From an uncultured Oscillospiraceae bacterium (GTDB lineage Bacteria > Bacillota > Clostridia > Oscillospirales > Oscillospiraceae): a DNA stretch of 47,310 nucleotides. The notes below the pieces were generated by a model. That model saw only the letters and a program-made list of their open reading frames with translations. It had not been told where the DNA came from and ran no database searches. The stretch covers positions 1 to 47,310 of the forward strand of contig CALWXR010000016.1 in NCBI GenBank assembly GCA_944385535.1, in the 5' to 3' direction. A program made the position numbers and the translations under genes. Positions within the stretch are counted from its first letter, which is position 1; every line of letters begins with the position of its first letter. This document shows, in pieces, positions 27,949 to 47,104 of the stretch.

Positions 27949-28070
27949 ACAATCGCCTCCTGTAGATTATGAAATGGCTCCCCCTTCGGGGAGGTATGGG
28001 TAATCGGCCCGGGATTTTGGCATTTTTCGAGAGGAAGAAGGGGCCGTTGAAGGGCACGCAGTAAAAACCA

Positions 28071-28603
28071 TGTCATCTCGAGCGTAGTCAAGAGATCCTG
28101 GCACTTATGGGCGTTAAAATGTCCGCTGGTTTCGCCGGAGAAACCATTTGCGTGCCTGCTGACCGTAAGTGCGTGGATCCCTCGACTTCGCTTTGCTCCG
28201 CTCGGGATGACAGACTTTTTTCTGCGGAGGAACCACCTTGCTTCGTTGGTTGCTGCGCACTTCCCCACTGTCATCTCGAGCGTAGTCGAGAGATCCTGGC
28301 ACTTATGGGCGGAGAAGGGGTCGTTGGTTCCTCCGCACTTCCCCACTGTCATCTCGAGCGTAGTCCAGAGATCCACGCACCCCCGGGCGGAAAAGTGTCC
28401 GTTGCTTCCGCCGGTGGAACCATTTGCGTGCCTACAGCCGGTAAGTGCGTAGATCCCTCGACTCCGCTTCGCTGCGCTCGGGATGACATATCTTTTTTGC
28501 GGCAAAACCAACGCCCTGCCTCGGTGTGCCGGGCTGTGGGTTGGCTGCGTGGCACTCCCCTTCTTGTCATCTCGAGCGTAGTCGAGAGATCCTGGCACTT
28601 TCG
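28071..28603. repeat. Repeat cluster E (6 units)
   Basis: Units at 28071-28108, 28169-28212 (inverse), 28269-28306, 28347-28381, 28445-28488 (inverse) and 28565-28603 fill the gap between uxaA and uxaB. Two composites of forward plus inverse unit are visible (28071-28212 and 28347-28488). The 5' part 27949-28070 holds the uxaA leader and a short hairpin. No gene seen. Confidence 0.85.
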
Positions 28604-28645
28604 GGCTCTAAAATGTCCGTTGGTTCCTGTCCTCCCAAGCGGACC

Positions 28646-31603: not shown

Positions 31604-32395
31604 TCACGGCTGCTTGCCGATATAGGCCAGAATGCCACCGTCCACATACAGAATGTGGCCGTTGACAAAGTTGGACGCGTCGGAGGCAAGAAATACCGTG
31701 GGGCCAACCAGGTCTTCCGTGGTGCCCCAGCGGCCTGCCGGGGTCTTACTGATGATGAACTGATCGAAAGGATGCCGGCTGCCGTCCGCCTGCCGCTCCC
31801 GCAGGGGGGCGGTCTGCTGGGTGGCGATGTAGCCGGGGCCGATGCCGTTGCACTGGATGTTGGCCTCGCCGTACTCCGAGCAGATGTTCTTGGTGAGCAT
31901 CTTCAGACCGCCCTTGGCGGCGGCGTAGGCGGACACGGTCTCCCGGCCCAGCTCGCTCATCATGGAGCAGATGTTGATGATCTTGCCGTGGCCCTTTTTA
32001 ATCATGCCCGGGATCACCGCCTTGGAGACGATGAAGGGTGCGATGAGATCCACGTCAATGACCTTGGAGAAATCCTCCACGCTCATGTCCGTCATGGGGA
32101 TCCGCTTGATAACGCCCGCGTTGTTCACCAGAATGTCAATGACGCCAACCTCTTCTTCGATCTTGGCCACCATGGCCTTCACCGCTTCCTCGTCGGTAAC
32201 GTCCGCCACATAGCCGTGGACCTGAATTCCGGCGTCGGCGTAGGCCTTCACGCCCCGCTCCCGGCTTCCTTCGCTGGAGCAGTTGAAGCACACGGTGGCC
32301 CCCGCCTTTGCCAGGCCTACCCCCAGGGCAAAGCCGATGGAGTGGGCGCCGCCGGTGACCAGGGCCACCTTACCGGTCAAGTCAAACATGTTCAT
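31604..32395 (-). CDS. kduD: SDR dehydrogenase: 2-keto-3-deoxygluconate / gluconate 5-dehydrogenase
   Basis: 263-residue short-chain dehydrogenase: nucleotide motif TGGAHSIGFA, NNAG, catalytic Ser in ICSMMSELG, YAAAK (Tyr and Lys). Close relatives are annotated gluconate 5-dehydrogenase. Next to KduI and pectin enzymes, the likely job is KduD: reducing 2,5-diketo-3-deoxygluconate to 2-keto-3-deoxygluconate. The ATG at 32395 overlaps the GH105 stop (ATGA) and follows AGGAGG by ten bases; an upstream in-frame start is rejected. Last gene of the long operon. Substrate choice between KduD and IdnO is inferred from context. Confidence 0.85.
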   Translation of the reverse strand: MNMFDLTGKVALVTGGAHSIGFALGVGLAKAGATVCFNCSSEGSRERGVKAYADAGIQVHGYVADVTDEEAVKAMVAKIEEEVGVIDILVNNAGVIKRIPMTDMSVEDFSKVIDVDLIAPFIVSKAVIPGMIKKGHGKIINICSMMSELGRETVSAYAAAKGGLKMLTKNICSEYGEANIQCNGIGPGYIATQQTAPLRERQADGSRHPFDQFIISKTPAGRWGTTEDLVGPTVFLASDASNFVNGHILYVDGGILAYIGKQP

Positions 32396-33540
32396 TGTGG
32401 TTGTTCCTCCTTTTCTGATAGCAGCAATTCCGTATAACACATTAAGAAGGGGGCCAGACCCTTGGCGTCGTTTTCCACCACCGGCTCGGAGATGTAGTAT
32501 TCATAGGTGCCGTCCCGGCGGCGGTTATTTTCCGGGCCAAGACCTGCCACCAGGCAGATGCCCCCCAAATTCAGCTCTCCGTTCCGCTCCGTCAGGTAGC
32601 GGCGGCAGATGCTCTCAAAAATATTCCGGCCCACCTGACTGTAGCCAGGCTCCAAAATCCCCAGCCGGGCGCCCTTCAGGTAGAAGTAGGCCACCATGGC
32701 GGAGCCGGAGGTCTCCGGGTAATTCCCCTCCCGGCCGATCTGGTTGGGCACCTGCCAGAGCATGCCGGTTTCCTGATCGATGTAGGGCAGCAGATTCTTC
32801 GCCAGCTCTCCGGCGATGGTCTCCAGCTCCCGGCGAAGTTCCTCTCCCCCGGGGCCTTCCGCCTCCGCCCACACGTCGATGAGGGCGGCGCTGAACCAGC
32901 CCAGGCTCCGAAGCCAGGGATTCTGAGAGCAGCCGTTTTCCCCTGCCCAGAAGGCCTTGCCGCTGGCGTCATAGCCGTGGCGGTACAGCCCGGTTTCCGG
33001 GTCGTACATCCGCTTGCGCACCGTGGCGAACTGGCGGCGGATGTCCTCATATCCCGCCCCCTGTTCCAGTTCCCCGGTATACCGGCAGTAGAACACCTGG
33101 GCCATGTACAGCCCGTCCAGCCACACCTGATCCGGGTAGATGGCCTTGTGCCAGAAGCTCCCTTCCCAGGTTCGGGGCTGGCGCTTCAGCTGACCGTAGA
33201 CCGTCTCCATGGCCCGGCGGTATTTCTCCTTTCCGCTGAGCCGGTACACGTCAAAGAGCACTCTTCCCTCGCAGATATTGTCCAGGTTATACTCCTCCTC
33301 CCGGAAGCCCCGGATGGAGCCGTCCTCAAATACATAGTAGTCAAGGAACTGTTCGGCGAAGGTATAGTACTTTTCCTGACCGGTAATCCGGTACATATTC
33401 AGCAGGGCGATCATCATACAGCCGTCGATGTAGTTCCAGCCGTTGATCTTCCCCTCCTTGATCTTTTCAATGTTCCACAGGGGCCTTTCCGGGGTGGATT
33501 CCCCCAGGATCCGTTCCACATAGGCCTCGATTTGATTCAC
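32392..33540 (-). CDS. Unsaturated rhamnogalacturonyl hydrolase (GH105)
   Basis: 382 residues, an (alpha/alpha)6 barrel as in B. subtilis YteR. The segment DQVWLDGLYMAQVF puts Asp142 where YteR has its catalytic Asp143; WHKAIYPD, NPWLRSLGWFSAALIDV and ETSGSAMVAYFYLKG are family blocks. It removes the 4,5-unsaturated uronate left at the end of oligosaccharides by lyases, giving the substrate for KduI. No signal peptide: intracellular. The start is a GTG that overlaps the GH28 stop by four bases (GTGA). No pectate or rhamnogalacturonan lyase is in the window, so the unsaturated ends must come from elsewhere. Confidence 0.92.
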   Translation of the reverse strand: MNQIEAYVERILGESTPERPLWNIEKIKEGKINGWNYIDGCMMIALLNMYRITGQEKYYTFAEQFLDYYVFEDGSIRGFREEEYNLDNICEGRVLFDVYRLSGKEKYRRAMETVYGQLKRQPRTWEGSFWHKAIYPDQVWLDGLYMAQVFYCRYTGELEQGAGYEDIRRQFATVRKRMYDPETGLYRHGYDASGKAFWAGENGCSQNPWLRSLGWFSAALIDVWAEAEGPGGEELRRELETIAGELAKNLLPYIDQETGMLWQVPNQIGREGNYPETSGSAMVAYFYLKGARLGILEPGYSQVGRNIFESICRRYLTERNGELNLGGICLVAGLGPENNRRRDGTYEYYISEPVVENDAKGLAPFLMCYTELLLSEKEEQPQ

Positions 33541-35078
33541 GTCCGCACCACCCTTTCCACATTCACCGGGATGACCGGTTCCCCATCCTGGCCGGTCATG
33601 GTAACGTTCTTTAAATGTACCTGCTTCACCTGATTGAAATACAGGCCCAGCTTTCGCACCGGATCCACATAGTCCATCATGGCGGGCCGTCCGGCGGAGG
33701 CGTCCTCCTTAAAGGTGAAGCTTACGTTTTCAATGGTCACGCTTTCAATGGGGCGCTCCGTCAGGCCGTAGAAGTAGCCCGCCGCCCACTCGCAGTCGGT
33801 GCATTCCATATCCCGGAAGCGGAAGGCCCCCAGGTAGGGCGTGGTGTCGTCCACAGGATGGGCCTCCTTGCTCCAGACGATCTCCTCGTGACCGTCGGGA
33901 TCGCAGAAGTAGTACATGTTCATCACCAGGGGAACCATCACATTGTCCATGCGGATGTTGGAAAACTCCACATCGTCGATCACCGCGTACTTGCCCCGGC
34001 CCCGGCGGGTCTTGATCCGCAGGCCCCGGTCGGTGTGCTTGAAATAGCACTGGGAGACGGTCAGATCCTTCACGCCTCCGGACATTTCGCTGCCTAAGAC
34101 CATGGCCCCATGGGCGTACTCCATCAGGCAGTTGCGAACCACATGGCGAGTTGCCGGGGTCTGGTACTTCATGCCCATGTACATCTTTCCCGCCTTGATG
34201 GCAATGGCGTCGTCTCCCACGGAGAACCGGACGCCGATGTAGGACACCTGATCGCAGGACTCGGGATCCGTGCCGTCGGTGTTGGGGCTGTCCTTGGGAG
34301 CCTCCACGGCAATGTTGTAGAAGTGGACACGCTTACAGAAAAAGGGATGAAAATGCCAGCAAGGGGAATTTTTTCCCAAAATCCCGTGGAAGGCGACGTT
34401 TTCACAGTGGTTGAAAAACACCAGCTTGGGCCGGCCGATGGTGCGCAGCTTTACATCCACCCACCATGCGCCGTTTACGGCGTTGCCGTCCAGCGTTCCC
34501 TGGCCTACAATGGCCAGATCGGAGGCGTAGTGGGCGCTGAGGATGCTCTGGCGGCAGGGGCAGGGATTGCCCTCCCAGGAGCTGACCTGGATCATCTCCC
34601 CGGTAAGGCCGTCGGGGATCTCTCCCGGCAAAATGGGATAGTGCTCCTCCACCGGATCCGCCAGCAGCGTTGCCCCCGCCTGAAGATGCAGCGTCATATG
34701 GGACTTCAGCACCAAAGGACGGATCAGATAGGTGCCCGCCGGCACCGTCACCCGGCCGCCCCGGGGGCACAGATCAATGGCCGCCTGGATGGGGGCGGTA
34801 TCGTCGGTGACGCCGTCTCCCGCCGCACCGAAGGACAGGACACTGACGCAGCCGGTCTCCTGTTCCGTGGTGAAGGTCAGGGTCTGGCCCTCCACCTCCA
34901 CAAAATACTCTGTCCCGGGCTGCAAATCGAACAGGGAAAAAACATTGGTGCGCACGCCCTTCAGGGCGGGCGCACCATTCACGTTTACGTCAAAGGCTTT
35001 TTCCGCGTAATACGGGGATGTATTTTCCAGTTCAAAGCAAGCCGACACAGAGGAAGTATAAAGCAAATGAAATTTCAC
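33537..35078 (-). CDS. Polygalacturonase-type glycoside hydrolase (GH28)
   Basis: 513 residues: an N-terminal beta domain (about 1-75, fibronectin-like), then the right-handed beta-helix. Active-site blocks are NTDG (266-269, Asp268), GDD (288-290), HG (323-324) and RIK (354-356), all intact. It hydrolyses galacturonic acid linkages; the N-terminal domain and the start of the helix (FGAAGDGVTDDTAPIQAAID) resemble exo-acting and rhamnogalacturonan-type members. No signal peptide, so it acts on imported oligomers. The spacing to the ATPase gene is 43 bp, and the stop overlaps GH105. Exo- or endo-mode cannot be decided here. Confidence 0.93.
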   Translation of the reverse strand: MKFHLLYTSSVSACFELENTSPYYAEKAFDVNVNGAPALKGVRTNVFSLFDLQPGTEYFVEVEGQTLTFTTEQETGCVSVLSFGAAGDGVTDDTAPIQAAIDLCPRGGRVTVPAGTYLIRPLVLKSHMTLHLQAGATLLADPVEEHYPILPGEIPDGLTGEMIQVSSWEGNPCPCRQSILSAHYASDLAIVGQGTLDGNAVNGAWWVDVKLRTIGRPKLVFFNHCENVAFHGILGKNSPCWHFHPFFCKRVHFYNIAVEAPKDSPNTDGTDPESCDQVSYIGVRFSVGDDAIAIKAGKMYMGMKYQTPATRHVVRNCLMEYAHGAMVLGSEMSGGVKDLTVSQCYFKHTDRGLRIKTRRGRGKYAVIDDVEFSNIRMDNVMVPLVMNMYYFCDPDGHEEIVWSKEAHPVDDTTPYLGAFRFRDMECTDCEWAAGYFYGLTERPIESVTIENVSFTFKEDASAGRPAMMDYVDPVRKLGLYFNQVKQVHLKNVTMTGQDGEPVIPVNVERVVRT

Positions 35079-35121: not shown

Positions 35122-36198
35122 TCACTTTATGACCATTTCCGTCTCCGCGTCGAACAGATACGTCCGTTCTGTGGGCACGGAGAACCAGATGTGCTCGTCC
35201 ATCTTGGGGGCCTCGTAAGGCGTCACCTTCAAAATGGCGTTGGCGTCGGGCATATTCACGTAGACGTTGGTGTTGTCTCCCAGCATTTCCGTCAGCTCCA
35301 CGTCCGCCTGGAACTGGTAGCACCCTTCCTGCTTGCCCAGGAGGACGTCCTCGGGCCGGAAGCCGAAGTACACATCCTTGCCCTCATATTCGGCGGCCTT
35401 GTTCAGGTTGGGGCTCAGGTCATAGGTAACCCCGGCCATGTTCGCCTTGCCGCCCCGGACGGTGGTGCGGATGAAGTTCATAGGAGGCTCGCCGATAAAC
35501 CCGGCCACGAACAGATTGACGGGCTCAAAGTACAGCTCCTTGGGGGTGCCCACCTGCTGGATGTAGCCGTCCTTCATAATGACGATCCGATCCGCCAGGG
35601 TCATGGCCTCCACCTGGTCATGGGTGACGTATATGGTGGTAGCGCCGGTCTGCCGGTGGATCTGGGCAATCTCCGAGCGCATGGTCACACGCTGCTTGGC
35701 GTCCAGGTTTGAAAGGGGCTCGTCCATGAGGAATATGCCCACCTTCCGGATAATGGCCCGGCCTACCGCCACTCTCTGGCGCTGGCCGCCGGACAGCGCC
35801 CGGGGCATCCGGTCTAAGTAGTCGGTCAGGCCCAGAATGCCCGCCACTTCCCTGACCTTCTTGTCGATCACATCCTCGTCCACGCCCTGGAGCGTCAGGC
35901 CGAAGCCCAGGTTGTCGTACACCGTCATCTGGGGGTACAGGGCGTAGCTCTGGAACACCATCGCCACTTCCCGCTCCCGGGGGCCCATTTCATTGGCCCG
36001 AACCCCATTGATCAGCATCTCGCCGGAGCTGATGTTCTCCAAGCCCGCGATCATCCGCAAGGTGGTGGATTTTCCGCAGCCGGAGGATCCCACGAATACG
36101 ATGAACTCCCCTTTTTCGATCTCCAGGCTGAAGTCATGGACCGCGTGGTAACCGTTGGGGTAGATTTTATTGATTCCATTCAGGGTCAAGTAAGCCAT
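35122..36198 (-). CDS. Carbohydrate ABC importer ATPase B (MsmX/UgpC type)
   Basis: 358 residues: ABC domain with Walker A GSSGCGKST, Q-loop VFQSYALYP, signature LSGGQRQR, Walker B IFLMDEPLSNLD and His in YVTHDQ, then a C-terminal TOBE/OB domain (about 240-358) with GFRPEDV. It energises CUT1 sugar permeases. In many Firmicutes one such ATPase (MsmX) serves several importers from a distant locus; here two are inside one operon. It lies 18 bp after a small membrane-protein gene and 43 bp before GH28. The ATG follows AAGGAG. Confidence 0.93.
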   Translation of the reverse strand: MAYLTLNGINKIYPNGYHAVHDFSLEIEKGEFIVFVGSSGCGKSTTLRMIAGLENISSGEMLINGVRANEMGPREREVAMVFQSYALYPQMTVYDNLGFGLTLQGVDEDVIDKKVREVAGILGLTDYLDRMPRALSGGQRQRVAVGRAIIRKVGIFLMDEPLSNLDAKQRVTMRSEIAQIHRQTGATTIYVTHDQVEAMTLADRIVIMKDGYIQQVGTPKELYFEPVNLFVAGFIGEPPMNFIRTTVRGGKANMAGVTYDLSPNLNKAAEYEGKDVYFGFRPEDVLLGKQEGCYQFQADVELTEMLGDNTNVYVNMPDANAILKVTPYEAPKMDEHIWFSVPTERTYLFDAETEMVIK

Positions 36199-36216
36199 AT
36201 TCCCACACTCCTTATT

Positions 36217-36819
36217 TCACTTACGGCTCTGAGGGCGAAGCTTCTCCCGGGTCTCCCGGAGGATCCGGTCGAGAAAATTCCTGAGTCGCACAAACAGCAG
36301 ATCAAATCCCATGCAGAAGGTTCCGAACAGCACCGGCTCCACCCCCAGGGGCACGGCGTCCGGGTTGCCTGTGATGGTATTGATGGTCAAATTGATCACA
36401 TTGTAAAGCAGATACACACAGATCACGATCACCAGACCATAGACTACATTCAGGAAAAACCGGCCCACGCCCTTGCCCCGGATCATCAGCAGCGGCGCGT
36501 TGGCCTCCGGGGTCTTTTCAATAAACCGGATCACATTGTTGGTCAGCAGATCCGTGACCATACCCAGCGCAACGCCCAGGACGAACAGGATGTCGATGAT
36601 CCCGCCCAGGTAGAACCCCAGGCCCCAGAGGATGAAGTAGCACACCGCCCCGGCAAACCAGGCTTTGATCAGCAGCACCTTCGCCAGCTCCGGCAGCTTG
36701 ATCTTTCTTTGCGACCGGTATTTGTTCAGCTCCTCCTGGGAATATTCCGGGGTCTCCTCCCGAACCAGGTCCGCCACCGCTTCGCTATTAAGTTCATAAT
36801 TCTTTTTGCTTTGTTCCAT
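36217..36819 (-). CDS. Small four-helix membrane protein of unknown function (module 2, second)
   Basis: I do not recognise this family. 200 residues: a long charged N-terminus (1-45), about four membrane helices (near 50-70, 72-92, 121-145, 161-177) and a basic C-terminal tail rich in Arg (RLRNFLDRILRETREKLR). No enzyme motif and no signal peptide. It lies between another small membrane protein (29 bp upstream) and ATPase B (18 bp downstream), inside the pectin importer operon. Its ribosome site is weak (GGGGAA), so translation may be coupled. A role as accessory subunit or scaffold for ATPase B is inference. Confidence 0.75.
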   Translation of the reverse strand: MEQSKKNYELNSEAVADLVREETPEYSQEELNKYRSQRKIKLPELAKVLLIKAWFAGAVCYFILWGLGFYLGGIIDILFVLGVALGMVTDLLTNNVIRFIEKTPEANAPLLMIRGKGVGRFFLNVVYGLVIVICVYLLYNVINLTINTITGNPDAVPLGVEPVLFGTFCMGFDLLFVRLRNFLDRILRETREKLRPQSRK

Positions 36820-36848
36820 ATTGCTTTAGGGGTTCCCCTTTCCGGGGC

Positions 36849-37417
36849 TTAGTCTTCCAGTTCGATCTGTCCCATGTTCTCGTTGCCGGAAACCTCCACA
36901 GAGGTGCTGATCTTCCGCAGCAGCTTACTGTACAGCGGTAGCAGCGCCACCAGCAGGGCACTGACCATAATCAGGGTCAGGTGGGTGCCCAGCATGTTGT
37001 AGGCTTCGGCAATGTAGGCGGTGGATTCCGTGACCTGAATGGGGCTTTCCGCGCGGGTCAGAGCCGCCATAATGGCGTTTCTGTAGTGGATGTCACAGTA
37101 GGCGATGATGGCAAGCATGCCGTACATCAGAGCAATCATGGGCACATTGGGCTTCTTCCGCCGGGGGAATGCGTTCATCAGGCACACCAGACTCAGCAGA
37201 GAGAACAGCATAATGCAGAACTGGCTCAGGCCCATGCCGACGCCCTGGATTTTGGCGGTGGTGTCGGACATGCTGGTCAGGTTAAAGGAATAGACGATGA
37301 AGGTAATGAGCATCATCACCATGGGAATGGTGGAGGGCTTGCGCTTTAAGCTGACGATCTGCTTGCGGAGGAACTCCTTGCAGCGGCCGCCCGGTGCGCT
37401 TAAATTGGTCTTTTCTT

Positions 37418-37421
<4 letters not shown>
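36849..37421 (-). CDS. Small four-helix membrane protein of unknown function (module 2, first)
   Basis: Not recognised. 190 residues: a basic N-terminus (1-30, LRKQIVSLKRKPS), four membrane helices (near 31-49, 62-83, 92-110, 141-163) with PRRKKP between helices 2 and 3, and an acidic C-terminus (GQIELED). The layout (helix 2, an Arg-rich turn, helix 3, a loop, helix 4) is like that of the protein at 39008-39601, suggesting two copies of one module. The ATG overlaps the stop of ATPase A (ATGA) and follows GGAGG by ten bases, which fixes the start; a longer frame is rejected. Confidence 0.75.
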
Positions 37422-38506
<1,085 letters not shown>

Positions 38507-38519
38507 AGCTTACTCCCTC

Positions 38520-39011
38520 TCATGCGGTTTTATTTTCCAGCGTGGCCATATGCTGGGCCAGACGCCGGTTGTTGATGGAACTGTTCACCGCGGCCGCGAT
38601 GCAGCAAACGGCGGAAATGATCAGGCATACCACCACATAAATGTACTGGCCGCGCTCCATAGCCGGGTATTCCACTCCGGATACGGTGACAACGTCCTTG
38701 GCCGCCTGGGTAGGCAGATAGAAGATCCGCACCACCTGCATCACACCCAGAAAGATCAGCAGTCCGGTGTAGCCGGTTTTCCGGCTTTTCACGCCCTCGG
38801 ATGCCAGGAAGGCAGCGAGCATGAACAGAAGGTTATACACCACGGAGGCTCCGATCTTCCAGTTGTAATAATAAGAGCCGATGTCCGTCTGATACAAACT
38901 GACAAAATACAAGGCGTCAAAAACAATGGCAATGAGCACCAGGTTGGATGAAAGCTTGTCCTTGGTAAAGCGCATGCGATCCGCCTGTATGGCGCGTTCT
39001 TCCTGTGTCAT
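38520..39011 (-). CDS. Small four-helix membrane protein of unknown function (module 1, second)
   Basis: 163 residues: a charged N-terminus (1-20, MTQEERAIQADRMRF), four membrane helices (near 21-40, 52-70, 81-99, 121-142), a Tyr-rich loop (GSYYYNW) and a short charged tail. Similar hypothetical proteins occur in gut Clostridia, as far as I recall, but no function is known to me. The ATG overlaps the stop of the preceding gene (ATGA), which decides the start; ATPase A follows after 13 bp. Position between a membrane protein and an ATPase mirrors the gene at 36217-36819. Confidence 0.75.
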   Translation of the reverse strand: MTQEERAIQADRMRFTKDKLSSNLVLIAIVFDALYFVSLYQTDIGSYYYNWKIGASVVYNLLFMLAAFLASEGVKSRKTGYTGLLIFLGVMQVVRIFYLPTQAAKDVVTVSGVEYPAMERGQYIYVVVCLIISAVCCIAAAVNSSINNRRLAQHMATLENKTA

Positions 39012-39601
39012 GCCAGGGCCTCCTTTCCGCTTTTCAGCAGGGCTTCCTCGCTGCGCATCATCTTCACCTTCCACACCAGGTTGACGATCAACCCGACGGC
39101 GGAGAGGATCAGCACGACGCCCACCAGATAGTGAAGATCCAGCAGGAAGGTAGAGTCAATATAGGGGGTCTTCCACATTTCGGAGAATTCCTTCAGCGCT
39201 TCAAAATCCACAGTGGTCAAATACTGGTGCTTGAAGCCCTGAATCTGAATGTGGGACCAAACGGTAACCGCCACCGCTGCCACACAGTAGACGCCGGTGG
39301 CAATGTAGTTGCTGATGTAGTATTTCCTGCGCACATTGGTATTGGTAAGAAACAGCGCCGCGGCTAGCAGGATCAGCCCGATGCTGCTGCTAAGAAAGGT
39401 TTTGTTGAACGGCTGCATATCATAGTAGATGATGGAGCCGGGAACGGACGTCTGGGTCAGATCACTGGGATTTCTCATAGTGGAGTACAGGCTGTCGTAG
39501 ATATCCGTGATGATGCCCAGGGAGTAGACAAAGCAGACAGCTGCCGCGATAACGGCAAACAGACAGGCGATTTTTTGGAAACCCAACTGTTTTTTATACA
39601 T
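39008..39601 (-). CDS. Small four-helix membrane protein of unknown function (module 1, first)
   Basis: Not recognised. 197 residues: four membrane helices (near 10-32, 70-87, 97-117, 156-177), NVRRKYY between helices 2 and 3, an extracellular-looking loop 35-68, and a second loop 118-155 with aromatic and acidic residues. Helix order and the Arg-rich turn resemble the protein at 36849-37421. The ATG follows GGGGAGGTCACT. It is the first gene after the binding lipoprotein, separated from it by a hairpin (39634-39652) that may lower downstream expression. Confidence 0.75.
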   Translation of the reverse strand: MYKKQLGFQKIACLFAVIAAAVCFVYSLGIITDIYDSLYSTMRNPSDLTQTSVPGSIIYYDMQPFNKTFLSSSIGLILLAAALFLTNTNVRRKYYISNYIATGVYCVAAVAVTVWSHIQIQGFKHQYLTTVDFEALKEFSEMWKTPYIDSTFLLDLHYLVGVVLILSAVGLIVNLVWKVKMMRSEEALLKSGKEALA

Positions 39602-39704: not shown

Positions 39705-41882
39705 TCAGCCGTTCAGGCTGTTATAGTAGGAAATCAGACGGTCGTAAGCGTCCTGCTTCAGCTGCAGATACTGCTTGCCGGACCAGGTTTCCTGCACGGT
39801 GGTCACGGCCTCGTCGGCGGAGCCCAAGCCCTCCTCGGTATAGCCGGAGGCGATGATGTCAACCATCACGTTGGCGCCGCTCTTGTTCTGATCGAACTTA
39901 TTCTTCAGGTCCGTGTAGGAGTTGATCATGTCATTCTCCTGGGTGGTGGTGGGCAGCACGGTGGGAACGGAGGTGTACCAGGGGTTCTCGGTCACGGCCA
40001 GCTCCGGATGCTTGATGGTGCCCAGGCCGATGGCGGTGGAGATGTAGCCGGCGCCTTCCTTGCCCACCTCATGGGTGCACTGATACTCAAAGGCCTGGCT
40101 CTTGGCAAAGCTCAGGGTGGAGCCCAGGTACTGACGGGCGTAGTTGGTGTAGTTGCCGCTGGCCTTCTCCCACAGCTCTTCGTAGGTGGCGTCGGCGATC
40201 ACGGGCATTTCCTCACCATTAAAGTTGAAGGTGACATAGCTGCCGTCGTCATTGGTCTTAATGAAGGCGTCGGGGCCGTAGGACATGAGGATCTGGCCTT
40301 CGGGAGAGTAGGCGTAGTCAATGAGCTTCAGACAGGCGTTGAGCTTGTCCTGATCGTCGCCCACACCGGCAACGCTGATGCCCCAGCCGTCGGTCTTGAC
40401 GGACCGCCAGGATTCGGTAAAGCGCATGTACACGCCGTCCTCAGAGGTGCCGTCATACCAGCGGGCCACAGGAACCATGGCCGCCATATATTTTTCGCCC
40501 TCCTGGAGCTTGGTGGCGTTGTAAACGGTCTGGGTCTGGTTGTAGTCGTAGTGCATGAAGCCCAGGTCGTTCTCCAGCATGGTGGCGGAGGATTCCTCGG
40601 ACATATCCACAAAGGACTGGGAAATCAGGCCTTCCTGGGTCATGGCGTACATACGCTCCAGAGCTTCATAGGTTTCCTTTTCGCCCCGGGCGTCATGGAG
40701 CTTTCCGTCAGCGCCAACATACAGGTATTCCTGACGGGACTCCAGGCCCCGGACGCCGAACAGGGTGCCGCAGAACCGGAACATATCCACCCGGCGCTGA
40801 TTGTTGTTGTCCTCACGGGAGAACAGGCCCTGAATGGAGTCGGTGCCGTTCAGAGTCTGGGCGTTTGCCACCACGCAGCGCAGCAGGGCCACCAGCTCGT
40901 CGGCGTCCCAGGCGGCGTTCTGGCCCACGAACAGGTTAGAGCGCTGGGTGCCGTAGTAGCCGTTGTAGGCTTCGTCAATGTAGGTGCGGAGCATGTTCAC
41001 GGCGGTCACGCCGTCCACCGCTCCGGCGGCCAGGGCCTCGTTCATCTTGGCAATGATGTTGCCGGCGGTGTCGTAGTCCTTGGTCACGGTCTCCACGCCG
41101 GAGCCGTCAGCCTTGACCACGTCGATGTCCACCTTGCCGGAGGTGGGCATATAAGGCTGGTAAACCGGGCTCTTCAGCTGGCCGCTCTTCTCGGCGGTGA
41201 ATTCCCCTTCGCCGTCCAGCAGCTTTACCACCCAGTCCACACGCATCAGAGGCATACGCTCGATGTCGTTCACGCCGTCAAAGTAGGGGGAGAAGTAGAT
41301 GGCGCCGGTGGAGGTATCGCCGGTGATGGACAGGCGGACAATGGGATTGGCTTCCAGATAGGCCTTGAAGTTGGGCATCTGATCCAGGTATTCGGCAATG
41401 TTGACGATGGAGCCGGCGGCGCCGAACTCGGACAGGATGGTGGCGGTGCCGCTGACCATGTCCACTTCGTTCAGCCGGTCCTTCCAGAACTCAAATTCCT
41501 TGGTGGCGCTGTTGCCCTGGTACTTGTTTTCAAATACCATGCCCAGGCGGTTCTGCACTTCCACCCAGGTGGGCTTCAGCTCACCGGCGTGGTAGGTGAT
41601 GCCGTCGGCCAGGGTCACGCCGTCGCCGGCAACTTCCGCGTCAAAGAACAGGCCGGTCTTGGTGCTGTTGTAGCCGGTGGCCATCCGCAGCACGGTGCCC
41701 TCGGCAAAGCTCAGGGCATCGGCTTCCGCGGCGTCGGTAGCCCCGGCGTTATCGCCGCCTTCGGGTACCTGGGCAGCGGTGGTCTGGGTAGGTACTTCCA
41801 TCTCCTGGCCGCAGCCCGCCAGCACGGCGGCGGTCAAACATAGAACCAGCAGGAATGAAATCAGTCGTTTTGTGCCTTTCAT
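39705..41882 (-). CDS. Extracellular solute-binding lipoprotein for (oligo)uronides
   Basis: 725 residues: a lipoprotein signal with lipobox LAGC (Cys24), a Thr/acidic linker (25-55), then a two-lobed binding domain of the LplA/family-1-like type. It is much longer than the usual 430-560 residues, which suits long or branched oligosaccharides. Blocks seen include SYTDLKNKFDQNKSGANVM near the end. It lies downstream of its two permease genes, contrary to the more common order. The ATG follows AAAGGAGATTACC. The ligand (pectic or rhamnogalacturonan oligomers) is inferred from the operon. Confidence 0.9.
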   Translation of the reverse strand: MKGTKRLISFLLVLCLTAAVLAGCGQEMEVPTQTTAAQVPEGGDNAGATDAAEADALSFAEGTVLRMATGYNSTKTGLFFDAEVAGDGVTLADGITYHAGELKPTWVEVQNRLGMVFENKYQGNSATKEFEFWKDRLNEVDMVSGTATILSEFGAAGSIVNIAEYLDQMPNFKAYLEANPIVRLSITGDTSTGAIYFSPYFDGVNDIERMPLMRVDWVVKLLDGEGEFTAEKSGQLKSPVYQPYMPTSGKVDIDVVKADGSGVETVTKDYDTAGNIIAKMNEALAAGAVDGVTAVNMLRTYIDEAYNGYYGTQRSNLFVGQNAAWDADELVALLRCVVANAQTLNGTDSIQGLFSREDNNNQRRVDMFRFCGTLFGVRGLESRQEYLYVGADGKLHDARGEKETYEALERMYAMTQEGLISQSFVDMSEESSATMLENDLGFMHYDYNQTQTVYNATKLQEGEKYMAAMVPVARWYDGTSEDGVYMRFTESWRSVKTDGWGISVAGVGDDQDKLNACLKLIDYAYSPEGQILMSYGPDAFIKTNDDGSYVTFNFNGEEMPVIADATYEELWEKASGNYTNYARQYLGSTLSFAKSQAFEYQCTHEVGKEGAGYISTAIGLGTIKHPELAVTENPWYTSVPTVLPTTTQENDMINSYTDLKNKFDQNKSGANVMVDIIASGYTEEGLGSADEAVTTVQETWSGKQYLQLKQDAYDRLISYYNSLNG

Positions 41883-41998: not shown

Positions 41999-42889
41999 TT
42001 ATTCCTTCACGCCGCCTACATTCACGCCCTTGGCGAAGTACTTCTGAATGAAGGGGTAGATGATCAGGATGGGTACAATGGAGCAGACGATCAGCGCGTA
42101 AATAATAGAATCGGAGGAGTAAATCTCGTTCCAGCCTGCCATGGCCTCCGGGTCGGTGTATTCCTCCAGCTTCAGCCGGATAAACACCTGCAGAGGATGC
42201 TCATTGGAGTTGGAGATCATCTGCCGGGCCCAGAAGTAGCCGTTCCACCGGGAAATGGCGAAGAACAGAGCCACTGTGGCGATGGTGGACTTACTCATGG
42301 GGATGTAGACCTTGGAGAGCACCTGGAATTCCGTGGCGCCGTCCACAATGGCCGCCTCCTCGATGTCCGAGGGCACCCCTTCAAAGGCGTTGCGAAGCAG
42401 GATGATGTTCATGGCCGCCATACCCATGGCGATGACGACCAGCCACTTATCGTCGGTGATGCCCATGGCGTTGAATACCTCCTGGGTATCCAGGTAGTTT
42501 AAGTACTGGGGCACGATACCGGCGGAGAACCACATGGTAAACACCAGGAAGAAGTTGAAGAACCGGCGGAACAGCAGCCGCTTCTTGCTCAGGGCGTAAG
42601 CGCCCAGGATGGACACGCCCAGAGCCCAGACCGTACCGTAGACCGTAAGGAACAGGGTATTGGTATAGGCGTTCCAGAACATGTTGTCGTTGAACATCCG
42701 GGAGAACGCCTCGAACTGAATGTCCTTGGGGAAGAGCACGATCTCGCTGTAGTCCACCGCGTGCCGTCCCGAAATGGCGCCGGAAATGGCGTAGATAAAC
42801 GGGTACAGGCAGCACAGGGCAAACATGGTAAGCAGGGTGTAGCTGATGATCTTAAAAATAAGCTCGGAGATTTCCAGTTTTCTTTTCAC
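41999..42889 (-). CDS. Carbohydrate ABC importer permease (LplC/YtcP type)
   Basis: 296 residues, six membrane helices. The cytoplasmic EAA loop that docks to the ATPase is seen as EEAAIVDGATEFQVLSKVYIPMSKS, and NIILLRNAFEGVP precedes it. The C-terminus KYFAKGVNVGGVKE is typical of LplC/YtcP proteins. It is the second channel subunit, 15 bp after the first. The start is a GTG (42889) behind a purine-rich AGGGGGCGAGGG. It works with the permease at 42905-43963, the binding lipoprotein and one or both ATPases. Confidence 0.93.
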   Translation of the reverse strand: MKRKLEISELIFKIISYTLLTMFALCCLYPFIYAISGAISGRHAVDYSEIVLFPKDIQFEAFSRMFNDNMFWNAYTNTLFLTVYGTVWALGVSILGAYALSKKRLLFRRFFNFFLVFTMWFSAGIVPQYLNYLDTQEVFNAMGITDDKWLVVIAMGMAAMNIILLRNAFEGVPSDIEEAAIVDGATEFQVLSKVYIPMSKSTIATVALFFAISRWNGYFWARQMISNSNEHPLQVFIRLKLEEYTDPEAMAGWNEIYSSDSIIYALIVCSIVPILIIYPFIQKYFAKGVNVGGVKE

Positions 42890-42904: not shown

Positions 42905-43963
42905 TTAATACAGCGATACGTCCGATGCTTTCCGGGAAATGGTATTGGCGCCGATAACCAGCAGCATACTGATCACGTTGCTCATCATTTCCGCCGCCGA
43001 GGCCAGGCCCTGGGCGGAGGAGGAGCCGAGACCGTAACGCTGGGCGAAGGTGGAAACCACATCTGCGGTAACGTAGGTATTGGTATTGTACAGCAGCAGC
43101 ACCTTTTCGTAGCCCACCTGAAGCAGGGAGCCGATCCGGGTGATGAGCATGATCACCAGCGTGGACAGGATGCTGGGCAGCACCACGTATTTCATCTGGG
43201 CCATTTTATTGGCGCCGTCAATCTGGGCAGCCTCGTAGCTGGTGGGAGAGATGGCGATGATGGCGGCGAAGAACACGATGCTGTCGTAGCCTGCAGTCTC
43301 CCAGATGCCGCTGATCTGGTAAATGGCCCGGAAGAAGTCGGGATTGTTCAGCAGGCCCGCGTAGGCCACCTCATGACCGATCAATCCCATACTGTACAAG
43401 ACCTGAGACAGGATGCCCATGTTGGAGGTCAGGGAGCCCTGCTTGACCAGCATGGTGACCAGAGAGGTCATGACCACGGTGGAGATGAATTTGGGCAGAT
43501 AGGTGAGCACCTGGTAGGCGCTGCGCAGAATGTCGGACTTGATCTCATTGAAGAACAGGGCCAGGATCACCGGCACCGGGAATCCAAAGACCAGACCATA
43601 GAAGCTCAGCAGGAAGGTATTGCGCAGAGCCCGCCAGAACTCGGTGGAAAGGCCGTCGCCGCTGACCAGCAGCCGCTTGAAATAAGAGAAGCCGGAGAAA
43701 AACTGTTCCGACACCGGTTTGACTTCGTCGGCCACCTTAAAGCACCGCAGAAGCTCATACATGGGAAAGTACCGCCAGAACAGGAACACCAGGATCATGG
43801 GTACGAGCATAAGGTACAGCCGCCAGTCCTTTGCCATGGTGCGCAGGACGTTGCGCCAGTAGTGCTTTTCCACATCGTCCCGCACCAACTGTTCAGGGTC
43901 TGCCCGGTAGGTTTTTGAGGACTTGTCGTACACAAGGAAGTCCCCTGCCAAGGTTTTTTTCAA
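42905..43963 (-). CDS. Carbohydrate ABC importer permease (LplB/YteP type)
   Basis: 352 residues: a cytoplasmic N-terminus longer than usual (about 50 residues before the first helix, YLMLVPMILVFLFWRYFPMY), six helices, and the EAA loop YEAAQIDGANKMAQMKYVVLPSIL. It is the first channel subunit of the oligosaccharide importer, as in B. subtilis YteP of the rhamnogalacturonan cluster. The start is a TTG (43963) overlapping the stop of the preceding gene (TTGA), with GGGGAG seven bases upstream. Expected at the cytoplasmic membrane. Confidence 0.92.
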   Translation of the reverse strand: MKKTLAGDFLVYDKSSKTYRADPEQLVRDDVEKHYWRNVLRTMAKDWRLYLMLVPMILVFLFWRYFPMYELLRCFKVADEVKPVSEQFFSGFSYFKRLLVSGDGLSTEFWRALRNTFLLSFYGLVFGFPVPVILALFFNEIKSDILRSAYQVLTYLPKFISTVVMTSLVTMLVKQGSLTSNMGILSQVLYSMGLIGHEVAYAGLLNNPDFFRAIYQISGIWETAGYDSIVFFAAIIAISPTSYEAAQIDGANKMAQMKYVVLPSILSTLVIMLITRIGSLLQVGYEKVLLLYNTNTYVTADVVSTFAQRYGLGSSSAQGLASAAEMMSNVISMLLVIGANTISRKASDVSLY

Positions 43964-44547
43964 TGCTTAACTCCCCTTTCAGTTTGCTGCTCTGCCTGTA
44001 CGCGGAGCAAATAATGTTTTTGGTCTTCAAAGAGCCCCTCTATCCGCCGGATGATCCACATGAGGAAGGCCGTAAACAGCACGCTCAGGATATCCGTCGT
44101 AATAAAGCCAACCAAAGCCTCCCCGGGAAAGCCCAGCGCCGCGACCGCGGCCGTTCTCCCCAGGAGCATCAGGAGCTGAACCGCCACGCCGAAGCTGACC
44201 GACAAAAAGCTGTCGTTTCGGATCCGCTCCTTCCCGAAGATGGGAAACATCACCAGCGCCCCCAGACAGGCCAGGTTCCCCAGTCCGTAAACCAGGTACT
44301 GCCGTCCTTCCCCCTCTGCCAGGGCCACAAACAGCAGCCCGCCGCACAGGGCGTGGATGGCGGCATAGCCGTTCCAGCGCATCATCACCAGGGCGGTCAC
44401 CGCCGCCACCGGGGACACCACATACAGCTGCTCCGGGTACCAAAAGGTACAGGCGTGGTGAATGAGATATTGAGATACTGCCAGCACCGCCAGAAGGATG
44501 GTCAGGTCGATCCAGCGGTATTGGCGGAAGGAAATGTGTTGTTTCAT
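43960..44547 (-). CDS. Six-helix membrane protein, ECF S-component-like
   Basis: 195 residues with about six membrane helices (near 14-32, 40-55, 60-76, 83-103, 112-130, 142-166) and a charged tail (GLFEDQKHYLLRVQAEQQ). Size and topology are those of substrate-binding S components of ECF vitamin transporters, but I cannot confirm the family. It lies between the pectin methylesterase and the first permease and is coupled to the permease by overlap. No EcfA/EcfT genes are here. It may be an accessory protein of the sugar importer, or an S component using a shared ECF module. Confidence 0.6.
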   Translation of the reverse strand: MKQHISFRQYRWIDLTILLAVLAVSQYLIHHACTFWYPEQLYVVSPVAAVTALVMMRWNGYAAIHALCGGLLFVALAEGEGRQYLVYGLGNLACLGALVMFPIFGKERIRNDSFLSVSFGVAVQLLMLLGRTAAVAALGFPGEALVGFITTDILSVLFTAFLMWIIRRIEGLFEDQKHYLLRVQAEQQTERGVKH

Positions 44548-44551
44548 AGGC

Positions 44552-45430
44552 TTACCTTTGCCCTTGGGTGTCCTGCCGGTTGACCCAGCTTACCCGGCCG
44601 GGTATCGGAGGGGATTCATAAAACCGGGCCGTCTTGTCCCGGCGGGTGCCGGCCCAGGGATCGAAGCCTTCCGGTGCGATGTGAGGCCCCTGGACGCAGT
44701 TTTCAAATCGGGCCATCCCGTAGTCCCGCCAGGGCCGGGCCAAATAGACGCTGCCGTCGGCCACGCCCTCCTCCCGGGTCAGGGAGCAGCCTTGGAAGCG
44801 GAAGCCCTCCGCCTGCTCCCGGCTGTGGGACGGGGCCGCCACAAAGCCTTTGCTTCTGGCGTCCCGGCCGGAGCGAAGCTCGCAGCCTTCAAACAGCGCG
44901 CTGCCGCCGCCGAAGATAAAGTCCACGGTGCCGGTGATCCGACAGTTTACAAACCGCTGCCTTTGGATTCCGCCCCGGCGCAGCTCCTCCGGAAGGAAGC
45001 CGTCGTACCGCTCGATCAGATCCTCAGGCAGGGGCCCCAGGAACAGGGTGTCCTGGGTGGAGGTAAGGCGGCAGTTTTTCATGGTAAAGTCATCGCCGCA
45101 GACGGACAGGGCGATCTGCTGGCCCTTTTTTTCCGGCTGGCCCGCGTCGTTGATCACGGAAAGGTTTTCCATGGTCACATGGTCGGCGCACACCGCCAGG
45201 GTGTAGGTTCGGAAGGTGATGTAGCGAAAGCCTTCCCCGTCTTCCTTGTTGGCGTAGTCGTCATAGACAATCCGCGTCTTTTCCGGGCCTTGTCCCAGGA
45301 TGGTCAGGCCATTGGTGCGGATCACGCATTTTTGCCGCCACACCCCGCCGGACAGGCGGATCACCGCGTTTTCCGGGGCGGCGTCCAGAATCTTCTGCAG
45401 ATTGTCGTCCGGGGTTACGTAAATCATCAT
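44552..45430 (-). CDS. Pectin methylesterase (CE8), intracellular
   Basis: 292 residues, a right-handed beta-helix esterase that removes methyl groups from homogalacturonan. Active-site blocks are complete: QDT (126-128, Asp127), DFIFG (170-174, Asp170) and RPWR (232-235). No signal peptide, unlike most secreted pectinesterases, so it would work on imported, still methylated oligomers. The start is the ATG at 45430 overlapping the kduI stop (ATGATG...); a longer frame inside kduI is rejected. It precedes the six-helix membrane protein by four bases. Confidence 0.93.
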   Translation of the reverse strand: MMIYVTPDDNLQKILDAAPENAVIRLSGGVWRQKCVIRTNGLTILGQGPEKTRIVYDDYANKEDGEGFRYITFRTYTLAVCADHVTMENLSVINDAGQPEKKGQQIALSVCGDDFTMKNCRLTSTQDTLFLGPLPEDLIERYDGFLPEELRRGGIQRQRFVNCRITGTVDFIFGGGSALFEGCELRSGRDARSKGFVAAPSHSREQAEGFRFQGCSLTREEGVADGSVYLARPWRDYGMARFENCVQGPHIAPEGFDPWAGTRRDKTARFYESPPIPGRVSWVNRQDTQGQR

Positions 45431-46263
45431 CTTAGGGCGTTGGTGGGGATGCCGTCCATGTCGTCGAAATCCTGATTTTCGCCGCACATGCCCCAGATGA
45501 AGGTGTAGTTGGCGGTGCCTACGCCGGAGTGGATGGACCAGCTGGGGGAGATCACCGCTTCTTCGTTGTGCATAACGATGTGCCGGGTTTCGCTGCCCTG
45601 GCCCATCATGTGGAATACCGCCTGATCCGGGGCGATCTCAAAATAGAAGTAGACCTCCATCCGCCGCTCATGGGTGTGGGAGGGCATGGTGTTCCACACG
45701 TTGCCGGGAAGCAGGGCGGTCATGCCCATGCTCAGCTGGCAGCTTTCGCATACCGCCGGGTGGATGTACTGGCGCAAAATCCGCTCGTTCACCGTCTCCT
45801 GAGCACCCAGGTGGTTGTAACGGGCCTTCTCCATGGGGATCAGCACCGTGGGGCAGGTGCGGTGGGCGGGAGAGGAATTGATATAGAACTTGGCCGGGTT
45901 CTCCTTATCCATGGAGCGGAACACCAGCTCCTTGGCGCCCATGCCAACGTAAATGCCGTCCTTGTGCTTCACGGGATACTCCACCCCGTCCACCACCAGA
46001 ACGCCGTCGCCGCCGATGTTGATGGCTCCCAGCTCCCGGCGGGCCAGGAAGTAGGGGGCCGCCAGCTCCTTGCAGCTTTCCAGCACCAGGTCCTCTTCCA
46101 CGGGCATGATGCCGCCGGCAATGATCCGATCCTGATGGGAATAGGTCAGGTTGATGGCGTCCTTTTCAAAGATGCCGCCGATATGGTAGTGCCTGCGAAG
46201 CTGCTCAGTGTCGTAATGCTTGGAATCCTCGGGATGATTGGCGTAACGTACATCAAATCTCAT
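45427..46263 (-). CDS. kduI: 5-keto-4-deoxyuronate isomerase
   Basis: Isomerises 5-keto-4-deoxyuronate (formed from the unsaturated uronate freed by GH105) to 2,5-diketo-3-deoxygluconate. 278 residues, the same length as E. coli KduI. A cupin fold with the zinc site in PSHTHERRMEVYFYFE and a later His in SIHSGVGTANYTFIWGMCGEN. The start is the ATG at 46263, ten bases after GGGAG; a GTG three codons earlier is too close to that site. One base separates it from the preceding gene, and its stop overlaps CE8. Confidence 0.95.
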   Translation of the reverse strand: MRFDVRYANHPEDSKHYDTEQLRRHYHIGGIFEKDAINLTYSHQDRIIAGGIMPVEEDLVLESCKELAAPYFLARRELGAINIGGDGVLVVDGVEYPVKHKDGIYVGMGAKELVFRSMDKENPAKFYINSSPAHRTCPTVLIPMEKARYNHLGAQETVNERILRQYIHPAVCESCQLSMGMTALLPGNVWNTMPSHTHERRMEVYFYFEIAPDQAVFHMMGQGSETRHIVMHNEEAVISPSWSIHSGVGTANYTFIWGMCGENQDFDDMDGIPTNALR

Positions 46264-46264
46264 T

Positions 46265-47104
46265 TCAAACACGCTCCCATATGGTTTTAATAGTATCCAC
46301 CGCCCGGGGGATGTCCTCCCCGGTGGTGCCCTCCAGAGTCAATACGGCGTTTGGATCATAGGCCTTGATCCGCCCAAGAACAGCGGGAATGTCCATCTGT
46401 CCGGCGCCGAAGGGGGCCTGCCGGGGACGCTGACCGGGCTGGAAGAAAAAGTCCTTCATGTGAAACAGCAGGATCTGTCCCCGGAAGGTATTCAGTCCTT
46501 CCTCCAAAATGTCCATATACACATCCTGATTGGTCTGATCCAGGTAGTTATACAGGTCGAAAATCACCTTGGTCTCCCGGCCCATGCGCGCCCTGGTTTG
46601 GGCCAGCGCCTCCACGCTCCAGCACACATGACCGGCGGCCCCTTCCATGGCGACGGTGCTTCCCCATTTTTTGGCCTCGTCGCACAGCCCGGCGAAGATA
46701 TCTCCCACCCGATCCAGGGCCTCCCGGGTTCGGTTTTGGGGGTGGTAGGTCCACTGATCGTCGTTAAAGGAGCCGGTTTCGGAGCCCACGGCGTCACAGC
46801 CCATAAAGCGGCACACCTTCAGGTAATCCGCAAAAATCTCCCGACACCGAAGCACCTTATTTCCGTCAGAATGCACCGGATTGAAGTAAGCGCCCACCAG
46901 GGGGATGATCTTTCCCGCGTTCCGGAAGGCCTCGCCGATCTGCGCCGCCTTCTCCGCTGTGATGGCTCCGGGGGCGTATGGAATGTCCTCGTACGCCTTG
47001 TAGCAAACCATCTGCACCCCGTCGATCCCCAGCCGGTCCAGCCGGTCCAGGATGGCGTCGGTACCCTTGACGCCCAGGTCGTGGGCCCGGATGCAAAGCT
47101 TCAT
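46265..47104 (-). CDS. Sugar phosphate isomerase/epimerase-like TIM barrel protein
   Basis: 279 residues of the xylose-isomerase-like (AP endonuclease 2) superfamily: MKLCIRAHDLGVKG at the start, GSETGSFNDDQW, AMEGAAGHVCW with a likely metal-binding Glu, FDLYNYLD, LLFHMKDFFF with His and Lys, and LTLEGTTGEDI near the end. The spaced Glu, Asp, His and Glu residues can form the family metal site. The exact reaction is unknown. First gene of the pectin operon, so it probably acts on a sugar released from pectin (rhamnose, arabinose or an acid derived from them). The ATG follows GGAGGGCGCTT. Confidence 0.8.
   Translation of the reverse strand: MKLCIRAHDLGVKGTDAILDRLDRLGIDGVQMVCYKAYEDIPYAPGAITAEKAAQIGEAFRNAGKIIPLVGAYFNPVHSDGNKVLRCREIFADYLKVCRFMGCDAVGSETGSFNDDQWTYHPQNRTREALDRVGDIFAGLCDEAKKWGSTVAMEGAAGHVCWSVEALAQTRARMGRETKVIFDLYNYLDQTNQDVYMDILEEGLNTFRGQILLFHMKDFFFQPGQRPRQAPFGAGQMDIPAVLGRIKAYDPNAVLTLEGTTGEDIPRAVDTIKTIWERV

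What the first reader, a model, noticed from the sequence alone, without database searches (positions are those of the whole stretch)
35122..39601. Twin module of two small membrane proteins plus one ATPase, repeated inside a pectin importer operon
Going downstream the order is: four-helix protein, four-helix protein, MsmX/UgpC ATPase, four-helix protein, four-helix protein, MsmX/UgpC ATPase. The genes overlap or are 13-29 bp apart. Helix layout (helix 2, Arg-rich turn, helix 3) is shared by the first members of each module. Sugar importers normally need a binding protein, two permeases and a shared ATPase; nothing known to me needs four extra membrane proteins and a second ATPase. They may tie ATPases to the importer, sense flux, or form a separate exporter-like complex. 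This is the best candidate for an undescribed system here. The similarity of the modules is judged by eye.
Basis: partly seen in the sequence, partly recalled or inferred. Interest (0 to 1): 0.8.

Follow-up and report, generated by a model that had tools for sequence, protein, structure and literature searches.

The report
Pectin importer with extra membrane subunits
A sugar pump that some gut Clostridia probably use to take up pectin fragments is encoded together with five small membrane proteins that match no known family, which suggests an importer with built-in helper subunits not yet described.

Summary
The six genes are real and in the stated order (minus strand). The "twin module" reading fails: the four small proteins show no sequence relation to each other (profile probability at most 1.4%; permease control 93%), and ATPase 2 is not a fixed part (directly after B2 in 4 of 19 relatives, farther on in 8, not seen in 7).

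The conserved unit is larger: LplX-LplB-LplC-SBP-A1-B1-ATPase1-A2-B2, where LplX is a fifth small membrane protein without a family. A1 and B2 occur where this permease subclade occurs (4 of 4 in 391 class genomes; 5 and 6 of 6 in 245 order genomes). The six next-closest importers examined lack the block. A1 and B1 overlap as ATGA in 20 of 20 junctions and are fused in one genome. Selection is purifying. LplB here has an N-terminal extension. The linked pectinases show no clear signal peptides.

Best reading: dedicated accessory subunits of a CUT1 (Lpl/Alg-type) importer of pectic oligogalacturonides, A1-B1 an obligate pair, ATPase 1 the dedicated motor. Physical association and substrate are inferred. 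New variant of a known kind.

The parts
43960..44547 (-). LplX, 195 aa, small multi-pass membrane protein, fifth member of the set, no family
   Evidence: present in 14 of 14 loci whose contig reaches it
42905..43963 (-). LplB permease, 352 aa, with a clade-specific N-terminal extension
   Evidence: BPD_transp_1; extension
41999..42889 (-). LplC permease, 296 aa
   Evidence: BPD_transp_1; co-occurrence marker
39705..41882 (-). Large lipoprotein-type solute-binding protein, 725 aa
   Evidence: distant AlgQ1 relative; N-terminal hydrophobic signal with LAGC
39008..39601 (-). A1, 197 aa, four-helix membrane protein
38520..39011 (-). B1, 163 aa, four-helix membrane protein; start overlaps the A1 stop as ATGA
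37418..38506 (-). ATPase 1, UgpC/MalK-type, the motor that stays with the unit
36849..37421 (-). A2, 190 aa, four-helix membrane protein; start overlaps the ATPase 1 stop by 4 nt
36217..36819 (-). B2, 200 aa, four-helix membrane protein with a cytosolic N-terminal segment
35122..36198 (-). ATPase 2, UgpC/MalK-type, loosely linked
33537..35078 (-). GH28 pectinase, no clear signal peptide (linked enzyme)
32392..33540 (-). Glyco_hydro_88 family enzyme (Pfam family that covers GH88/GH105, recalled), no signal peptide
44552..45487 (-). Pectinesterase, no clear signal peptide (linked enzyme)
45427..46272 (-). KduI-family isomerase (linked enzyme)

Best explanation
A1, B1, A2, B2 and LplX are dedicated accessory membrane subunits of one subclade of type I (CUT1, Lpl/Alg-type) ABC importers. 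LplB and LplC form the pore, the large lipid-anchored binding protein delivers the substrate, and ATPase 1 is the dedicated motor. A1 and B1 form an obligate pair made at equal dose. The five proteins probably form a membrane annex around LplB-LplC, docking in part on the N-terminal extension of LplB, and stabilise the importer or hold the oversized binding protein for long, charged, partly methyl-esterified galacturonan fragments, which are then demethylated and cut inside the cell by the linked enzymes. ATPase 2 is a related spare or shared motor, not part of the core. Shown: gene linkage, co-occurrence, overlap, fusion, selection, topology signals, lack of clear signal peptides on the enzymes. 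Inferred: physical complex, docking site, stoichiometry, substrate and its length.
For: Order LplX-LplB-LplC-SBP-A1-B1-ATPase1-A2-B2 recurs in relatives, including L040 from another order with 31-36% identity in A1, B1 and B2. Class sample, 391 genomes: LplC orthologs of at least 62% identity in 4, exactly those with strong A1 and B2 hits; the other 59 genomes with LplC homologs have at most 44% and no strong A1 or B2 hit. Order sample, 245 genomes: LplC orthologs in 6, all with B2, 5 with A1; in the sixth, G119, the contigs break there. The six next-closest importers (LplC 39-44%) have LplB-LplC without the block or a linked ATPase in the stretches read, and three other Lpl-type importers of the same genome lack the five proteins too. 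ATGA overlap in 20 of 20 A1/B1 junctions, 1-nt overlap in L040; A1-B1 fusion in L018. dN/dS 0.05-0.15. LplB extension.
Against: No biochemical or structural proof of association. The A1-B1 model has pTM 0.50, no interface was scored, and no complex with LplB-LplC could be predicted. The small proteins evolve faster than the permeases (window versus L003: 54-67% against 88-91%), as a loosely bound or regulatory protein also would. Predicted folds are generic four-helix bundles, so structure gives no function. Co-occurrence shows a shared pathway, not contact. Two weak B2 hits (G108, G161) and three weak A1 hits (G393, G364, G307) were set aside as chance.
Confidence: 0.66

Rival explanations
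1. Regulatory or tethering role: the small proteins do not take part in transport but sense flux, or anchor the cytosolic pectinases (GH28 follows B2 directly in several loci) or an ATPase at the membrane beside the importer, through the conserved cytosolic tail of A2 and N-terminal segment of B2.
For: Conserved cytosolic tail of A2 and N-terminal segment of B2; GH28 next to B2 for example in L033, L036, L037, L038 and L040; faster evolution than the permeases.
Against: In the window and L003 ATPase 2 separates B2 from GH28; four or five separate polytopic proteins are many for an anchor; no signalling domain was found.
Confidence: 0.16
2. A separate ABC complex: A1, B1, A2, B2 form the membrane part of another (exporter-like) transporter driven by ATPase 1 and/or ATPase 2, merely encoded in the pectin operon.
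For: Two ATPases sit directly behind two pairs of membrane proteins in the window.
Against: Both ATPases are importer-type with the MalK OB domain; no exporter membrane family matches over a cut-off; strong A1 and B2 hits occur only with this LplC subclade; ATPase 2 is often elsewhere.
Confidence: 0.1
3. Two rounds of duplication of a two-protein module, now diverged beyond recognition, each pair serving its own ATPase.
For: Same gene order, same topology with a basic turn between helices 2 and 3 in A1 and A2.
Against: No profile similarity, ATPases not sister copies tied to the pairs. Remote duplication is not excluded.
Confidence: 0.05
4. Unrelated passengers kept in one operon by chance.
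For: None beyond lack of known families.
Against: Order kept between orders, co-occurrence, purifying selection, overlap and fusion.
Confidence: 0.03

Closest known systems
YtcQP-YteP and YesOPQ pectin importers of Bacillus subtilis, energised by the shared ATPase MsmX
   Different: No accessory membrane protein appears in the passages read and the ATPase is shared. Here ATPase 1 is a fixed member of the gene unit and five small membrane proteins are linked.
Alginate importer AlgQ1/AlgQ2-AlgM1M2SS of Sphingomonas sp. A1
   Same: The binding protein here is a distant relative of AlgQ1; both would handle acidic polyuronides (alginate system recalled; listing).
   Different: Two permeases and an ATPase pair only (recalled). 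Here five extra membrane proteins and a larger binding protein.
Intracellular breakdown of pectic oligomers in Butyrivibrio proteoclasticus
   Same: GH28, GH88 and GH105 enzymes reported as intracellular, implying uptake of complex oligosaccharides (passage of PMC2914790).
   Different: No transporter with extra small membrane subunits appears in the passages read.
Tetraspan auxiliary subunits of channels (TARP/stargazin, claudin-like)

Membership tests
Type I carbohydrate ABC importer (CUT1, Lpl/Alg-type) | Two permeases with the BPD_transp_1 domain | tested here: met
   LplC 51.5 and LplB 31.5 bits, cut-off 26.4
Type I carbohydrate ABC importer (CUT1, Lpl/Alg-type) | UgpC/MalK-type ATPase with the regulatory OB domain | tested here: met
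   OB_MalK over its cut-off in both; UgpC model 436.9 and 438.7 bits, cut-off 432; motifs intact
Type I carbohydrate ABC importer (CUT1, Lpl/Alg-type) | Exported, lipid-anchored solute-binding protein of AlgQ/Lpl type | tested here: met
   AlgQ1, E 8.7e-7 over part of the protein; hydrophobic N-terminus; no Pfam family matched
Type I carbohydrate ABC importer (CUT1, Lpl/Alg-type) | Transports a pectic oligosaccharide | not testable with these tools
   gene context only: pectinesterase, GH28, Glyco_hydro_88, KduI
Twin (duplicated) module | Homology of A1 with A2 and of B1 with B2 | tested here: not met
   0.2% for each; control LplB/LplC 93%; sequence profiles only
Twin (duplicated) module | Second ATPase fixed to the second pair | tested here: not met
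   of 19 relatives, directly after B2 in 4, farther downstream in 8, not seen there in 7
ABC exporter membrane domain | Match to an ABC exporter membrane family over cut-off | tested here: not met
   only weak hits, such as ABC2_membrane_2 in 2 of 22 A1 members (best E 0.0032)
ECF transporter S component (for LplX) | Match to an S-component family | tested here: inconclusive
   none among 14 weakly matched families over 19 members; no solved relative; S components vary widely (recalled)
DUF624 small protein of sugar operons | Match over the Pfam gathering score | tested here: not met
   A1 10.8 bits, cut-off 24.2; no DUF624 row for B1, A2, B2
TARP/claudin-like tetraspan fold | Specific fold match | tested here: inconclusive

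The most novel reading that the evidence does not exclude
A Gram-positive polyuronide import machine: LplB-LplC embedded in a permanent annex of five new membrane subunits, with an enlarged binding protein and a docking extension on LplB, built to thread long or methyl-esterified galacturonan chains straight into a cytosol that holds its own pectinesterase and polygalacturonase. To my knowledge it would be the first type I ABC sugar importer with obligatory extra transmembrane subunits.
Probability: 0.3. Interest if true: 0.8.

Novelty: new variant of a known kind. Interest (0 to 1): 0.6.

Why it matters
Type I ABC sugar importers are described as a fixed set: binding protein, two permeases, two ATPase domains (abstract start of PMC7658222 seen in the listing). 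A subclade that travels with five uncharacterised membrane proteins and its own ATPase would extend that rule, give five new protein families a testable function, and suggest how some gut Clostridia take up large pectin pieces and digest them inside.

Tried and rejected
Duplicate-module hypothesis: tested by profile comparison (deeper) and an ATPase tree; rejected at sequence level only.

Known-family hypothesis: Pfam and NCBIfam on the window proteins (Pfam alone for LplX and the enzymes), Pfam on all members of each family, solved structures with profiles of A1, A2, B2 and LplX (B1 was not run). Only scattered sub-threshold hits: TgpA_N in 6 of 22 A1 members (best E 0.00041), STE2 in one A1 member (0.00017), DUF6057 in 4 of 21 A2 members (0.00051), DUF7937 in one of 21 B1 members (8.9e-05), DUF1673 in one of 21 B2 members (0.00088). 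No family is shared by most members.

Weak hits set aside: B2 in G108 (E 6.2e-6) and G161 (8.0e-4), whose stretches hold no importer block; A1 in G393, G364, G307 (0.0013-0.0093), where only the short returned loci were scanned and no other block member matched.

First alignment of the fusion put A1 rows on the B1 half and was not used. Row subsets were tried by script and one that aligned each family to its own half was used: 19 of 20 A1 and 12 of 19 B1 rows.

Literature: eight searches showed no description of such accessory proteins in the rows listed. I saw listings, and passages of four papers: PMC6344614, PMC2914790, PMC5320581, PMC5730181. No paper was read whole; subscription journals are mostly not held.

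Full report
1. What is in the window. The six genes are on the minus strand at the stated place: A1 39008-39601, B1 38520-39011, ATPase 1 37418-38506, A2 36849-37421, B2 36217-36819, ATPase 2 35122-36198. Upstream lie LplX 43960-44547, LplB 42905-43963, LplC 41999-42889 and a 725 aa binding protein 39705-41882; downstream GH28, a Glyco_hydro_88 family enzyme and an SDR dehydrogenase; farther upstream a pectinesterase and a KduI-family gene. LplB and LplC are BPD_transp_1 permeases, both ATPases carry OB_MalK and pass the UgpC model. The binding protein matches no Pfam family but is a distant relative of AlgQ1.

2. The small proteins are real and without a family. A1, B1, A2 and B2 pass no Pfam or NCBIfam cut-off and LplX no Pfam cut-off (NCBIfam not run on it). 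Scanning every member gives only scattered weak hits. Profiles of A1, A2, B2 and LplX find no convincing solved relative. dN/dS in the two closest pairs (L010/L014, L007/L012) is 0.067 and 0.149 for A1, 0.104 and 0.071 for B1, 0.076 and 0.058 for A2, 0.066 and 0.053 for B2. Loop charges fit four helices with both ends inside. AlphaFold2 gives a four-helix A2 (pLDDT 82, pTM 0.73); the A1-B1 fusion is modelled mostly as helices with less certainty (pLDDT 76, pTM 0.50).

3. The conserved unit. A scan of genome contigs with B1 gave 18 loci, 50-99% identical, from uncultured Oscillospiraceae, Lachnospiraceae and other Clostridia (one MAG is labelled Bacteroides). L002 is nearly identical to the window. 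A1 and ATPase 1 are in 18 of 18 (ATPase 1 cut short in L009); B1 is there by construction; A2 in 17 of 18 (L009 ends in ATPase 1); B2 in 16 of 18 (L009 and L016 end first; L005 partial); LplX in 14 of 14 whose contig reaches it. Genome searches added L036, L037, L038 and the divergent L040 with the same order. In L036 my gene caller put an opposite-strand frame over LplB and LplC, but the LplC hit (87%) and an LplB frame lie there. L040 is from another order, has 31-36% identity in A1, B1 and B2, and a 964 aa binding protein.

4. ATPase 2 is loose. Of 19 relatives with at least 2 kb visible beyond B2 (14 plus L033, L036, L037, L038, L040), ATPase 2 directly follows B2 in 4 (L002, L003, L015, L017), lies farther downstream in 8 (L004, L007, L012, L018, L019, L036, L037, L038) and was not seen there in 7 (L006, L008, L010, L011, L014, L033, L040). 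In G119, the genome of L033, an ATPase of the ATPase 2 clade lies just upstream of LplX. ATPase 1 and ATPase 2 form two clades, and the window copies have intact motifs.

5. Not a recognisable duplicate. Profile-profile comparison of all six pairings of A1, B1, A2 and B2 gives at most 1.4%; the distant control pair LplB/LplC gives 93%.

6. Co-occurrence. In 245 genomes of the order, LplC orthologs (E 1e-60 or better) are in 6; A1 is in 5 of these, B2 in all 6, and two further B2 hits are weak and without the block. In the sixth genome, G119, LplX-LplB-LplC ends one contig and A2-B2-GH28 starts another, so A1 and B1 may lie in the gap. In 391 genomes of the class, 63 have LplC homologs at 1e-50: four are at least 62% identical, and these four are the ones with strong A1 (with three weak hits elsewhere) and B2; the other 59 have at most 44%. 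The two samples share some genomes. Of the six next-closest importers (LplC 39-44%), all six have LplB-LplC, four a BLAST-recognised binding protein, none an ATPase of this kind or any of the five small proteins in the 10-16 kb read. Three other Lpl-type importers of the window's own genome also lack the five.

7. Signs of a complex. A1 and B1 overlap as ATGA in 20 of 20 junctions read, by one base in L040, and are one continuous 353 aa frame in L018. LplB of this clade has 48-50 residues before a fixed column near helix 1 in 19 of 20 members (32 in L039, at a contig end), with a conserved stretch around PEQxVRDDVEKH in 18 (diverged in L040 and L089 but alignable); eight control LplB have 6-28 residues and no such stretch. 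Binding proteins here run to about 680-960 aa (L008's lies in two frames) against 504-528 aa in three controls with an intact hit. L018's A2 has an insert of about 300 residues in the outer loop between helices 3 and 4, without a Pfam match.

8. Likely substrate. Enzymes linked to the unit are pectinesterase, GH28, Glyco_hydro_88 and KduI. A crude hydropathy test (no signal-peptide predictor was available) gives a best 12-residue score of 2.1-3.3 in 19 of 20 binding proteins assessed (0.66 in L033), 0.42-2.0 in 12 GH28, -0.37 to 0.65 in 10 Glyco_hydro_88 enzymes, and 0.22-1.31 in 8 of 10 pectinesterases; two (L037, L038) reach 2.3-2.8 only from far upstream starts. Four binding proteins, two GH28 and two pectinesterases could not be assessed. 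So the enzymes are probably cytosolic and oligogalacturonides, perhaps esterified, are imported whole, as passages of PMC2914790 imply for Butyrivibrio. The window's genome has no pectate lyase of PF00544; other lyase families were not tested.

9. Mechanism. Best reading: accessory subunits forming an annex around LplB-LplC, A1-B1 as obligate pair, ATPase 1 as dedicated motor. This rests on linkage, co-occurrence, overlap and fusion. Contact with LplB-LplC, the role of the LplB extension and the purpose (stability, docking of the large binding protein, long or esterified substrates) are inferred.

10. Known systems. B. subtilis YtcQP-YteP and YesOPQ take up this kind of substrate with the shared ATPase MsmX (passages of PMC5730181). 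Eight searches listed no description of accessory proteins of this kind. I rate it a new variant of a known kind.

Noticed in passing
window 28045-28616: Four direct copies of a 78 nt element (63-85% identity to the reference copy) and a 151 nt pair at 83%, just downstream of the 28646-30145 minus-strand gene; looks like an intergenic repeat that makes spurious open frames.
   Followed up: partly
L018 2695-4251: A2 relative of 519 aa with an insert of about 300 residues between helices 3 and 4, on the outer side; no Pfam match.
   Followed up: partly
L038 10412-11353: A2 frame extended at its N terminus by about 135 residues with three more hydrophobic stretches; a real fusion or an upstream start read too far.
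   Followed up: partly
L033 2804-4279: Binding-protein relative (34% identity) behind A2-B2-GH28 with a possible N-terminal membrane anchor and a long Thr/Pro-rich stretch.
   Followed up: no
L040 12774-15665: Binding protein of 964 aa, much larger than the 725 aa of the window.
   Followed up: no
L089 2573-3688: In G119 an ATPase of the ATPase 2 clade sits directly upstream of LplX instead of after B2.
   Followed up: partly
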